A stretch of 64,000 nucleotides of DNA. It comes from Fulvivirga sp. Lineage in GTDB: Bacteria; Bacteroidota; Bacteroidia; Cytophagales; Cyclobacteriaceae. Under the pieces are notes generated by a model. That model worked only from the letters and a program-made list of their open reading frames with translations, searched no databases and was not told where the DNA came from. Each line of letters begins with the position of its first letter. The first letter of the stretch is position 1. The position numbers and the translations under genes were made by a program. Below are positions 34,018 to 62,692 of the stretch, in pieces. The stretch lies in the NCBI GenBank assembly GCA_028280565.1, contig JANQLQ010000083.1, positions 62,001-126,000 on the forward strand, in the 5' to 3' direction.

Positions 34018-34257
34018 CTAAAATAATAATTTCACCAATTCATCCTTCGATACATTAAGATGACTTGCTACATCCTTCAAAATGGATGATAAAGTGCCAA
34101 TTTTTAATGGATTATGTGCGGGGATGGTAATATGATGTATACCGTTCTTTTTGGTAGTTAGACGAATATGACTCCCTACCTACCTTGTTGGACTATAACC
34201 AAGTTTTGCCAGCTTTTTGATAAAATCTTTGCTTGATAAATCACGTGGGATTTTCAT
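34018..34257 (-). pseudogene. HicA-like toxin frame interrupted by an in-frame TAG (codon 26, plus-strand 34180-34182)
   Basis: Manual translation: MKIPRDLSSKDFIKKLAKLGYSPTR*VGSHIRLTTKKNGIHHITIPAHNPLKIGTLSSILKDVASHLNVSKDELVKLLF*. HicA/YcfA-like; ATG overlaps hicB stop (ATGA). Confidence 0.8.
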
Positions 34258-34457
34258 GCTGCAAATACCTCCTCACGCACAAAATGTAAGCGTACCATCT
34301 TGGGGGAATTAGTCTCAAAATGACAATGAATAGCCTCTCTTACATTTTGCCTCAACTCTTCAATCGTATCGCCATCTGTAAAAATAGATTGATCTAGTGC
34401 CCTGGCCTCATACCCACCTTCAGGTGACTCTTCTACAATAAAAATGATTTCGGTCAT
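34254..34457 (-). CDS. HicB-like antitoxin
   Basis: 'FIVEESPEGGYEARALDQSIFTDGDTIEELRQNVREAIHCHFE' HicB-type fold; directly upstream of HicA-like frame. Confidence 0.85.
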   Translation of the reverse strand: MTEIIFIVEESPEGGYEARALDQSIFTDGDTIEELRQNVREAIHCHFETNSPKMVRLHFVREEVFAA

Positions 34458-37031: not shown

Positions 37032-37168
37032 ATTCACGGCCGGTCATCTCTAGCCAGCTACTGTTTTACTGCATGACTACGTGGCGAGGCGTGTGAGTAT
37101 TGGAAGAAGGCCTGTGTGGATAACGGTCGCTCGCGAAACGCAAACGACTGTTTTTAGTCTTTTCGGCA
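37032..37168. repeat. 137-bp direct repeat, left copy, flanking YoeB/YefM module
   Basis: attcacggccggtcatctctagcc...gtttttagtcttttcggca; matches 38024-38160 with one mismatch (attGgaag vs attAgaag). Confidence 0.97.
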
Positions 37169-37197
37169 GCCGATCGACAGGGGAAATAAAGCCTGGA

Positions 37198-37476
37198 CTA
37201 TTTATCCCCATAGTGTGACCATACACTCAATATATGTACTGTAACGATCTGTTCGCTGATGGAGTAAACTAATCTGTGTTTTTTATTGATCCTACGTGAG
37301 TACAAGCCCGCTAGATCATATTTCAGCATTCCAGGTTGCCCTGTTCCAGACGTAGGGTGCTCCATAAGTTCATTAAGCAGTTTTTCTATTTTCCTAAGTG
37401 TGGGCTTGTCTCCCGATTTCCTATGTTTTTCAATATCTTCTAAAGCAGTTTTGGAAAACTCTAAAGTATAACTCAT
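37198..37476 (-). CDS. yoeB: Txe/YoeB-family toxin
   Basis: SYTLEFSKTALEDIEKHRKSGDKPTLRKIEKLLNELMEHPTSGTGQPGMLKYDLAGLYSRRINKKHRLVYSI...VWSHYGDK. Confidence 0.94.
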   Translation of the reverse strand: MSYTLEFSKTALEDIEKHRKSGDKPTLRKIEKLLNELMEHPTSGTGQPGMLKYDLAGLYSRRINKKHRLVYSISEQIVTVHILSVWSHYGDK

Positions 37477-37757
37477 AGACCGAGTAAATCACTTATTTCC
37501 TTAGAAGTGGATACCTTTTGAACTTCTCCCTGTTGAACCTCTAAAATGCTCTGCTTGATTTTATTGACCATTTCCGCATTGAAGTACATGTCATCTTCGG
37601 TTACAGGGGTTAAAGCGTATGCCTTGTCTTTTCCCCTTTGAACAATAATATGTTCTCCTTTATCAACTTTTTCAAAATATTTCCTCTGATTTTGTCTAAA
37701 CTCCCTGCTACTTATTACCAGCATAATTTTACATTTTGATGTACCAGTATGGTACAA
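37473..37757 (-). CDS. YefM/Phd-family antitoxin
   Basis: 'MLVISSREFRQNQRKYFEKVDKGEHIIVQRGKDKAYALTPV'; stop overlaps yoeB start by 4 nt. Likely start at the internal Met (MLVISSREFRQ). Confidence 0.92.
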   Translation of the reverse strand: MYHTGTSKCKIMLVISSREFRQNQRKYFEKVDKGEHIIVQRGKDKAYALTPVTEDDMYFNAEMVNKIKQSILEVQQGEVQKVSTSKEISDLLGL

Positions 37758-38023
37758 ATATACTCAATGTAACGAAAACCGCATAGATGTTGTTTCATGG
37801 CAATGAGTCGGTTTGATTGGCCTGAAGTTCATTTTCGTATAAGTGGATCACGATCGCCCCATCTCGAATTGTTGTCCCCACTTTACGACCTATTGCATTA
37901 ATCCTATTTCCGGTAGCAACTTCGACACTAAGTCTGTCCAAAAGTTAAGATGCTCAAAGAACGACCTATTTCACTCTCCTCGCCGCCTCTCGCAGAGGAC
38001 TCTGCTAAGGCATAGAACAATCC

Positions 38024-38160
38024 ATTCACGGCCGGTCATCTCTAGCCAGCTACTGTTTTACTGCATGACTACGTGGCGAGGCGTGTGAGTATTAGAAGAA
38101 GGCCTGTGTGGATAACGGTCGCTCGCGAAACGCAAACGACTGTTTTTAGTCTTTTCGGCA
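38024..38160. repeat. 137-bp direct repeat, right copy
   Basis: 136/137 identical to 37032-37168 at an offset of 992 bp. Confidence 0.97.
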
Positions 38161-38492
38161 ACTGAGCGACTGGTAGAGAATCCCAATATCCCTTTGTTAA
38201 GCTCTAGTTGCAACTAACGGATCAAAATCACTCGTTACACTTTCTCTAATTGGTCAAACATCAATCTCAATTTGGCATGTACTCTATCAACTGGCCTAGA
38301 TAGTCAAAGAATAAGACGTTGGTTTTGAGCAGATTGACATTAATTTCATACTGACTTAACTATTACATAAATATTAATTAATTGTCATTTATCAAGTCAA
38401 TATTAGCGAACACTTAACTTGACTAAGAGAATGTGTAACCAGAACTTCTCAATCCCCTTTCGTATTCAATTTTTAACAAAACCCGATAAACC

Positions 38493-60057: not shown

Positions 60058-60563
60058 TACTGGCTGGAGGTTAAACGAAGTGGTCCTCCGACCTAAAATT
60101 AACTAGGGCGTCCGCCCGGTTTTCTTCGCTAGCGACCACTTAGCTAGCTAAAAGCAGTTGATCATCGAGAAACCAATAGCCGCTTACCTTTCTCCATAGC
60201 TGCCAGTTTAACCGTCCCTGTTAAATCGTAAAGGGGCGGAAATATTGTGGATTACGGGAAATTCCTACAGTGATACCTCGTTGGTGGTATTATTTCACCC
60301 CTTTGGGGTTGATATATTAGGTATTTATCTTTCCTATTATAATACCATCCCTTCGGGATTTAAAATACAGGTTAAACTCAATGTATTTCTTTAAACTAAC
60401 GGCTATGACCTTTTGCGAGTGACTGTCCGTTGGGGTCAACTACAAATTAATACCAAAGCAGTATCCCATTTGAAAGTATACGTTCCTAGTCGAATACGAG
60501 CGGACGCTCTTCCTATAGGGTAGGTCGTAGGAACGCTACCGCTAAACCTACGACCAGTGCGTT
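60058..60563. repeat. ~506-bp direct repeat, left copy, flanking DUF433/DUF5615 module
   Basis: tactggctggaggttaaacgaagtggtcc ... gaccagtgcgtt; closely matches 61447-61953 over the whole length. Confidence 0.95.
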
Positions 60564-60802
60564 TTCATCGTTAAGGACAACTTAGTTCTCTTAAAATAGT
60601 TATTTTTTTATCGAGAAATCAGTGTGCTCCGAAAAAACCAAGAACAGTCGCTTGTGTTTCGCGAGTGACGACCATCCTTGATGCCTCCGGTTGACTTATA
60701 CACAAGTGCCACGAGGTGAGTGATCGATCTTACACCGGCCAGAGGCCTAGGGATAGGGGTCACTCGGCTGAGGAGCCGAGCGACTGTTTTTGGGGATTCA
60801 TT

Positions 60803-61156
60803 TTATGAATACTCAATGAGCCCTTCATTATTGAGTTCCAAAAAATTACTTCGATTCAAAGCATTTTTAATGAGCAAAATATTGGTACGAAAAAGATCGA
60901 ACAGTTGCCGGTTTTTAATGTTGCCGGTGGTAACCAAGAATAGCCTGCGGGGTCGGTCCAATCCCATATGAGAATGATAAAAATCAAAATCCTTAGTAAG
61001 CACGATCAAATCGTTATCATCGGCATATGCCGAAACTTCAAAATCAGGCGTTTCATCTCCTTTTGGAAGTTGATCCACATGGATAGACTCAATTCCCAAT
61101 TGGTTTAATATTTCACAAAGCTTCGAGGGTAGTTGAGCATCTATGATCAACCTCAT
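60803..61156 (-). CDS. DUF5615 PIN-like protein (putative toxin)
   Basis: 'MRLIIDAQLPSKLCEILNQLGIESIHVDQLPKGDETPDFEVSAYADDNDLIVLTKDFDFYHSH'. Confidence 0.92.
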   Translation of the reverse strand: MRLIIDAQLPSKLCEILNQLGIESIHVDQLPKGDETPDFEVSAYADDNDLIVLTKDFDFYHSHMGLDRPRRLFLVTTGNIKNRQLFDLFRTNILLIKNALNRSNFLELNNEGLIEYS

Positions 61157-61389
61157 GTGGAGAATTTCGTGTAGCTGGAATACTTGGTCAGCTTTGTAGC
61201 GTAGGCCAAGCAGGCCAGGATGTCGGCTTCTTCCAAATTAGGATAGTCTTCCAAAATCTCTTCATGGGTTGACCCGGCGGAAAGAAGGTCAAGGACCAGG
61301 TCAACGGTATATCTTTTATTCCTGATCGTAGGTTTCCCGTGACATATATTCGGATCGATCGTGATCCTATTTAAAAGTTGATTATCCAT
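61153..61389 (-). CDS. DUF433 family protein (putative antitoxin)
   Basis: 'ITIDPNICHGKPTIRNKRYTVDLVLDLLSAGSTHEEILEDYPNLEEADILACLAYA'; overlaps DUF5615 gene start by 4 nt. Confidence 0.93.
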   Translation of the reverse strand: MDNQLLNRITIDPNICHGKPTIRNKRYTVDLVLDLLSAGSTHEEILEDYPNLEEADILACLAYATKLTKYSSYTKFST

Positions 61390-61446
61390 ACAGTAAAGTT
61401 ACGAAATCTTAGACTTTTGTCACGGATGCTGATTGGGGGGATGAGC

Positions 61447-61953
61447 TACTGGTTGGAGGTTAAACGAAGTGGTCCTCCGACCTAAAATTAACTAGGGCGT
61501 CCGCCCGGTTTTCTTCGCTAACGACAGTTTAGCTCGCTAAAAGCAGTTGATCATCGAGAAACCAATAGCCGCTTACCTTTCGCCATAGCTATCAGTTTAA
61601 CCGTCCCCCTGTTAAAATTCTAAAGGGGTAGAAATATTGTAGATTACGGGAAATTCCTACGGTGAAACCTCGAAAGCGGTACTATTTCACCCCTTCGGGG
61701 TTGATATATTGGGTATTTATTTTCCCTATCATAATACCATCCCTTCGGGATTTAAAATACAGGTTAAACTCAATGTATTTCTTTAAACTGACGGCTATGA
61801 CCTTTTGCGAGTGACTGTCCGTTGGGTCAACTACAAATTAATACCAAAGCAGTATCCCATTTGAAAGTATACGTTCCTAGTCGAATACGAGCGGACGCTC
61901 TCCTTGTAGGTAGGTCGTAGGACCGCTACCGCTAAACCTATGACCAGTGCGTT
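61447..61953. repeat. ~507-bp direct repeat, right copy
   Basis: See left copy; scattered substitutions and small indels only. Confidence 0.95.
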
Positions 61954-62197: not shown

Positions 62198-62413
62198 ATG
62201 ACAAGGCTTGGTGAGTATTTGGAAAAAAAACTAGCAAATAAGGCGGGTATAGCTCGAAAAACGGGAATTAGCAAAAACCGTTTGAGCCAACTCTCTATCA
62301 ATCATACGACAGTGCTGTCCGTTAAAGAACTATATTTAATTGCATTGGCGATAGAAGTAAATCCACACGAAATCTTAGACTTTGTTTGCCAAGACTTATC
62401 TCTTCCTAGTTAA
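62198..62413 (+). CDS. Small XRE/Cro-type HTH protein
   Basis: 'AGIARKTGISKNRLSQLSINHTTVLSVKELYLIALAIEVNPHEILDFV'. Confidence 0.8.
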   Translation: MTRLGEYLEKKLANKAGIARKTGISKNRLSQLSINHTTVLSVKELYLIALAIEVNPHEILDFVCQDLSLPS

Positions 62414-62485
62414 TGGTCACCTAATAAATAGTATCCTTAAAAGTCAATTGCCTGCATTACCTTTAATTTTAATAATAAGTTCAGG

Positions 62486-62692
62486 ATGGAAAAAGTTGTT
62501 TACAATAGAGTTAAGGCGGTTTTGGCGGAAAAAAGTAAAACCAATAATTGGCTTGCCGACAAGCTCCAAATGAATCGTACAACCGTCTCAAAATGGTGTA
62601 GAAATGAGATGCAGCCAAGAGTTGAAACCCTTTTCCAGATTGCCGATGTCTTAGACGTGGATGTAAGGGAACTTTTGGTCTCGACGAAATGA
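62486..62692 (+). CDS. Small XRE/Cro-type HTH protein
   Basis: 'NNWLADKLQMNRTTVSKWCRNEMQPRVETLFQIADVLDVDVRELLVSTK'. Confidence 0.9.
   Translation: MEKVVYNRVKAVLAEKSKTNNWLADKLQMNRTTVSKWCRNEMQPRVETLFQIADVLDVDVRELLVSTK

What the first reader, a model, noticed from the sequence alone, without database searches (positions are those of the whole stretch)
37032..38160. YefM/YoeB toxin-antitoxin module bracketed by 137-bp direct repeats with one mismatch
Seen directly: attcacggccggtcatc...cttttcggca occurs at 37032-37168 and 38024-38160, identical except one base, and the only recognisable genes between are yoeB and yefM. No transposase or integrase lies between or near. Such close identity implies recent duplication or ongoing conversion. 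This could be a transposase-less cassette, a circularisable unit excised by recombination between the repeats, or an insertion into one pre-existing repeat.
Basis: partly seen in the sequence, partly recalled or inferred. Interest (0 to 1): 0.68.

Follow-up and report, generated by a model that had tools for sequence, protein, structure and literature searches.

The report
Toxin-antitoxin operons bracketed by REP repeats
In this Fulvivirga-group genome a toxin-antitoxin gene pair sits between two nearly identical copies of a short intergenic sequence, and several unrelated toxin-antitoxin pairs elsewhere in the same genome are bracketed in the same way, which hints at how such gene pairs settle in chromosomes even though none has its own transposase.

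Summary
In detail: 37032-37168 and 38024-38160 are direct repeats with one mismatch (150 bp at 97% in all), and only yefM/yoeB lies between them. The site is not isolated. In 2.47 Mb (27%) of this Fulvivirga-group genome, eight gene-bearing intergenic direct-repeat brackets (60 bp or more, 90% or more, spacing up to 3 kb) were found. Five hold toxin-antitoxin (TA) modules of unrelated families (YefM/YoeB, ParDE, HigBA, HipA-like, DUF433/DUF5615; the last is in this window at 60058-61953), and two hold small XRE regulators. TA modules are bracketed in 5 of 11 cases, against 3 of about 2,000 other genes. The repeats contain REP-type elements related to those beside the genome's RAYT transposases. 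The two repeat pairs in this window also duplicate DNA found nowhere else in the genome, so they are local duplications. Orthologous TA operons in other species share only promoter plus genes and lie among different repeats. Best reading: bare TA operons enter REP-bearing intergenic DNA by homology-driven recombination, leaving reversible R-TA-R brackets. No empty site, circle or deletion allele was found, so mobility is inferred. An E. coli control (ccd at folA-apaH) shows no bracket.

The parts
37032..37181 (.). Repeat copy A (137 bp with one mismatch, 150 bp at 96.7%)
38024..38173 (.). Repeat copy B, direct orientation, start 992 bp downstream
37032..37107 (.). Part of the repeat found nowhere else in the genome apart from copy B: shows duplication of unique DNA
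   Evidence: all other hits fall in query 89-169
37122..37152 (.). REP-type hairpin, same family as the repeats flanking the RAYT gene on contig C194; second copy at 38114-38144
   Evidence: single-strand DNA fold -7.3 kcal/mol, weak against shuffles
37198..37476 (-). yoeB toxin gene, 92 aa; Gly at the column of catalytic Glu46 of E. coli YoeB
37473..37724 (-). yefM-like antitoxin gene, 83 aa, overlaps toxin start (ATGA)
   Evidence: below Pfam cut-off but syntenic and conserved in relatives
37738..37765 (-). Promoter/operator: TATATTTG overlapping a TGTACCATACTGGTACA palindrome, conserved upstream of orthologous operons
   Evidence: sequence comparison
37195..37797 (-). Block shared with other species: promoter plus two genes and nothing else
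37798..37938 (-). 47-codon open reading remnant beside the operon, possible captured gene fragment (weak DUF7352 match, E=0.005)
60058..60563 (.). Repeat copy of the second bracketed TA module in the window
   Evidence: 509 bp, 92.7%
61447..61953 (.). Second repeat copy of that bracket
60803..61156 (-). DUF5615 (PIN-like) putative toxin
61153..61389 (-). DUF433 putative antitoxin

Best explanation
This is a horizontally acquired, bare YefM/YoeB operon lodged in an intergenic stretch (R) that carries a REP element, with R present once on each side. It is one of several such sites in the genome. Shown: the direct bracketing, the duplication of unique DNA, the excess of TA modules inside near-identical brackets, the REP content of the repeats, and the absence of a transposase or integrase nearby. 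Inferred: an incoming DNA molecule carrying TA plus R recombined by homology with a single resident R (Campbell-type, or two crossovers from a linear R-TA-R fragment), producing R-TA-R. Also inferred: recombination between the two R copies can reverse this, looping out the TA and leaving one R, and toxin addiction makes such losses costly, so TA-filled brackets outlast brackets around dispensable DNA. Gene conversion between the copies may keep their centres identical.
For: Bracketed TA modules at 90% identity or more: YoeB, ParDE, HigBA, HipA-like, DUF433/DUF5615. With partner antitoxin genes removed, 5 of 11 TA modules against 3 of about 2,015 other genes, Fisher p=9e-11; without the index locus and the TA-selected C56 locus 3 of 9, p=1e-6. 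Random 530-bp windows are bracketed 0.53% of the time. The only HigB-type module and the only intact ParE-family modules not at a contig end are bracketed. Repeats carry dispersed REP families, but a pair is more alike (93-97%) than its other copies generally are (about 70-88%), and the pairs of YoeB and DUF433 include DNA unique in the genome. Mismatches cluster towards the ends in YoeB and XRE, as expected of recombination or conversion tracts. The orthologous operon in other species shares no flank. TA interiors have lower G+C (35-43%) than the genome (44.8%). A second copy of the bracketed XRE gene, at C219, is also in a direct bracket of the same REP family, and only gene plus promoter are shared.
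Against: No empty site, deletion allele or circle was seen. Three of four DUF433 modules and one ParE pseudogene are not bracketed. YoeB in this window has lost the Glu46-equivalent, so addiction here may be weak. Among 14 orthologous YoeB loci 5 are bracketed against about 10% of control windows, mostly by diverged repeats, which is only suggestive. The E. coli ccd insertion at folA-apaH has no repeats. Part of the sample was chosen by REP or TA hits.
Confidence: 0.42

Rival explanations
1. No mobility through the repeats. REP-rich intergenic regions keep duplicating locally, and TA operons arrive in the same permissive spacers by any route. Brackets around dispensable DNA are lost by repeat-repeat deletion, while those around addictive modules survive.
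For: 27% of non-coding bases are repeats. 27 brackets at 85% or more exist, many around ordinary genes or no gene. Enrichment is strongest at the highest identity, as survivorship predicts.
Against: Brackets around essential genes should then be equally common and were not seen at 90% or more. YoeB's catalytic Glu is replaced, which weakens addiction at the index locus.
Confidence: 0.3
2. REP-TA-REP units are moved by the genome's RAYT (TnpA_REP) enzymes acting in trans on same-strand REP hairpins, as IS200/IS605 transposases act on their two ends.
For: A RAYT on C194 (NF047646 over cut-off) is itself flanked by direct copies of the REP family found in the YoeB repeats. On C96 the order is repeat, RAYT, repeat, HTH/PIN pair, repeat. 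Repeats within 20 kb are mostly in the same orientation.
Against: REPtrons are reported not to transpose as a unit (PMC6006769). Single-strand transposition does not predict long near-identical repeats with unique DNA. No shared ends between TA loci.
Confidence: 0.12
3. One-step insertion with long target duplication: staggered break repair captured a TA fragment and duplicated 65-509 bp of local DNA.
For: Unique DNA is duplicated. Length varies from 65 to 509 bp. A possible captured gene remnant lies beside the operon.
Against: No bacterial transposase known to me gives such long target duplications, and it does not explain why REP elements are in the repeats or why TA is preferred.
Confidence: 0.1
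4. Integron-type gene cassettes with attC-like sites.
For: Repeat length (about 140 bp) and TA cargo resemble chromosomal integron cassettes.
Against: None of six bracket repeats has paired RYYYAAC/GTTRRRY core sites at attC spacing. Each bracket has a different repeat. No integrase among genes near the YoeB site.
Confidence: 0.02

Closest known systems
Type II toxin-antitoxin YefM/YoeB (Txe/YoeB, TIGR02116)
   Same: Gene order, overlap, operator palindrome, family score above cut-off, dN/dS 0.03-0.07 for the toxin against its nearest relatives
   Different: Gly in place of the catalytic Glu46; bracketed by near-identical direct repeats
REP/REPIN elements and RAYT (TnpA_REP) systems, Bacteroidetes subclass 2.6
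   Same: Dispersed hairpin-bearing intergenic repeats beside RAYT genes, atypical hairpins as described in PMC6006769
   Different: Known REPtrons flank the RAYT gene; here pairs of such repeats bracket TA and XRE genes
pdif modules (XerC/XerD dif modules) of Acinetobacter
   Same: Small discrete units, including TA pairs, between recombination sites and without their own recombinase (PMC6449649)
   Different: pdif sites are short (about 28 bp, from memory) and inversely oriented Xer sites; these are 65-509 bp direct REP-bearing repeats, different at each site
TA insertion at E. coli folA-apaH (ccd O157)
   Same: Bare operon occupying an intergenic slot that holds a REP in other strains (PMC7167474)
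   Different: No direct repeats flank the ccd insertion
Integron TA cassettes
   Same: Promoter-bearing TA operons between repeats
   Different: No attC core sites, no integrase nearby

Membership tests
YefM/YoeB type II TA | Toxin scores over YoeB family cut-off | tested here: met
   TIGR02116 79.3 against 51.8 bits; PF06769 69.8 against 27
YefM/YoeB type II TA | Phd/YefM antitoxin directly upstream | tested here: inconclusive
   PF02604 26.7 bits, cut-off 29.8; order and conservation fit
YefM/YoeB type II TA | Catalytic Glu46 (general base) of the active enzyme | tested here: not met
   Gly at that column; Glu in 10 of 13 aligned sequences, Lys in two. A feature of the active enzyme, not of family descent, so the family assignment stands while activity is in doubt
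REP elements of a RAYT system | Dispersed hairpin repeat shared with the flanks of a RAYT gene | tested here: met
   3' half of R matches repeats flanking the C194 RAYT; the hairpin itself folds only weakly
REP elements of a RAYT system | Cleavage by the cognate RAYT | not testable with these tools
   Needs biochemistry
Integron cassette | attC core sites | tested here: not met
Integron cassette | IntI integrase in the genome | not tested
   Only genes from 27 to 47 kb of the window were scanned
Composite or MITE-type transposon | Conserved ends that travel with the cargo | tested here: not met
   Orthologous TA blocks share no flank; each bracket has a different repeat
pdif module | Short inverted Xer sites | tested here: inconclusive
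   Brackets are long direct repeats, unlike pdif modules; Xer motifs themselves were not scanned
Recombination-made R-TA-R insertion | Empty site with a single R | tested here: inconclusive
   No relative searched keeps the flanks

The most novel reading that the evidence does not exclude
REP elements serve as general landing and release sites for small addictive operons: a transposase-less class of R-TA-R cassettes, possibly helped by RAYT enzymes, through which TA modules of unrelated families spread within and between Bacteroidota genomes.
Probability: 0.22. Interest if true: 0.8.

Novelty: new variant of a known kind. Interest (0 to 1): 0.56.

Why it matters
[quoted passage not shown] A genome in which unrelated TA operons lie between near-identical REP-bearing direct repeats gives a concrete, testable route (homology at dispersed repeats plus addiction) and a system in which loss and gain can be measured. 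No paper in the held library was found that links REPIN or RAYT repeats with TA brackets, though the library lacks most subscription journals.

Tried and rejected
Whole repeat as one hairpin: rejected, it folds no better than shuffles. Known RNA family: none in the window. High-copy element flanking genes at random: rejected for the 137-bp unit, true only for its 3' REP part. attC or integron: no core sites. Orientation as proof of duplication: dropped, because same-strand orientation is favoured at all distances up to 20 kb. High identity alone as proof: dropped, because distant pairs of 92% or more also exist. Empty site in relatives: searched, not found. General rule for TA insertion: E. 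coli ccd at folA-apaH replaces a REP without any bracket. Brackets at YoeB orthologues: 5 of 14, but one locus (L082) is so repeat-rich that its bracket means little, and the L081 repeats look like RHS core sequence, so these count as weak support.

Full report
Check of the observation. They extend to 150 bp at 96.7% and end abruptly on both sides. Between them lie yoeB (37198-37476, minus) and yefM (37473-37724, minus), identified by TIGR02116, PF06769 and, below cut-off, PF02604. The operator palindrome TGTACCATACTGGTACA and a TATATTTG box precede the antitoxin gene and are conserved in orthologous operons. No mobile-element gene was found among the main ORFs between 27 and 47 kb.

What the repeat is. 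A search of the 9.05-Mb draft genome finds the whole repeat only at these two places. About 16 weaker matches cover only its 3' part from about position 77. That part is a hairpin-bearing dispersed element; the same family brackets a gene on contig C194 that NCBIfam names a REP-associated tyrosine transposase, above cut-off. Such RAYT genes of Bacteroidetes are described as flanked by atypical hairpins with copies elsewhere in the genome (PMC6006769). The first 76 bp of the repeat exist nowhere else in the genome, so the bracket is a duplication of local DNA and not two insertions of a dispersed element. The second repeat pair of the window (60058-60563 / 61447-61953, 92.7%) likewise contains stretches without other copies.

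The pattern. I read 2.47 Mb of the genome (141 stretches; part chosen by REP or TA hits, most of the rest blind) and listed non-coding direct repeats of at least 60 bp at 90% identity or more that enclose ORFs within 3 kb. The enclosed genes are YefM/YoeB, ParDE (contig C56), HigBA (C34, in a blind stretch), a HipA-like pair (C135), DUF433/DUF5615 (this window), two small XRE regulators (C314, and C49 beside a RAYT) and one DUF695/RraB gene. Of 11 TA modules located by family searches and readable in the sample, 5 are bracketed, against about 3 of 2,015 other genes (p=9e-11). Leaving out the index locus and C56 it is 3 of 9 (p=1e-6). Random windows are bracketed 0.53% of the time. At lower identity a sixth case appears, C96, with the order repeat, RAYT, repeat, HTH_17/PIN_3 pair, repeat. 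One XRE gene family has 8 copies (seven at 77% identity or more, one at 49%); a second copy, at C219, is also in a direct bracket of the same REP family, and the two loci share only gene and promoter.

Other species. The nearest named relative is Fulvivirga sp. M361 (L076; it appears to be the same genome as same-genus G013). Orthologous YefM/YoeB operons in Fulvivirga, Marivirga, Ekhidna, Marinoscillum and others were compared; the blocks aligned consist of promoter plus two genes and no flank. In M361 the operon is bracketed by diverged repeats that look like the same REP superfamily (79%), and in L077 by a different repeat. Overall 5 of 14 orthologous loci are bracketed against about 10% of control windows, which is suggestive only. 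So the operon seems to travel as a bare unit and the repeats are acquired locally.

A control in another phylum. In E. coli the ccd operon between folA and apaH has thousands of empty alleles to compare with. It occupies the slot of a REP present in K-12, is again operon-sized, and has no direct repeats. Bracketing is therefore not an automatic result of TA insertion.

Mechanism. Best supported, but inferred: a DNA molecule carrying the operon next to an R copy recombines with a resident R, giving R-TA-R, and the reverse reaction deletes the operon. Addiction would select against the deletion, which explains why TA modules are the usual content of near-identical brackets. Mismatches lie towards the ends of the repeats in the YoeB and XRE brackets, which fits crossover or conversion tracts. 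The main rival keeps only the survivorship part: repeats duplicate locally at random and brackets around addictive genes last. RAYT-driven movement is possible but does not predict long identical repeats with unique DNA, and REPtrons are reported not to transpose as units (PMC6006769). The index toxin has Gly where E. coli YoeB has its general base Glu46 (PMC3814384), so addiction at this site may be weakened, although dN/dS of the operon is low.

Limits. The genome is a 337-contig draft, repeats often coincide with contig ends, only 27% was read, and TA calls rest on a handful of families. No strain-level comparison was available, so neither an empty site nor excision was shown.

Noticed in passing
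window 60058-61953: A second TA-type pair (DUF433/DUF5615) in the same window is bracketed by about 509-bp direct repeats at 92.7% identity.
   Followed up: yes
window 37198-37476: YoeB carries Gly at the catalytic Glu46 column and Tyr where nearly all relatives have His (column 53): possible loss or change of activity.
   Followed up: partly
window 37798-37938: 47-codon open remnant next to the operon with a weak DUF7352 match, possibly a captured gene end.
   Followed up: partly
window 34254-34457: Small orphan HicB-like protein (weak PF15919 match) without an evident HicA partner.
   Followed up: no
window 62198-62692: Two small XRE regulators in tandem beside the DUF433 bracket; a similar 78-aa XRE (L229) is bracketed beside a RAYT.
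   Followed up: partly
L148 3314-5503 (contig C96): Order repeat, RAYT, repeat, HTH_17/PIN_3 pair, repeat: a TA-type pair next to a RAYT in one repeat array.
   Followed up: partly
L061 1831-2123 (contig C56): Right repeat of the ParDE bracket is broken inside a REP hairpin by what looks like a group II intron end, close to the contig end.
   Followed up: no
L108 11358-11780 and seven other places: A 140-aa XRE gene is present in 8 copies (seven at 77% identity or more, one at 49%); both copies that could be read are in REP brackets.
   Followed up: partly
L231 (E. coli B27 folA-apaH): The ccd operon replaces the REP found at this site in K-12, without flanking repeats.
   Followed up: yes
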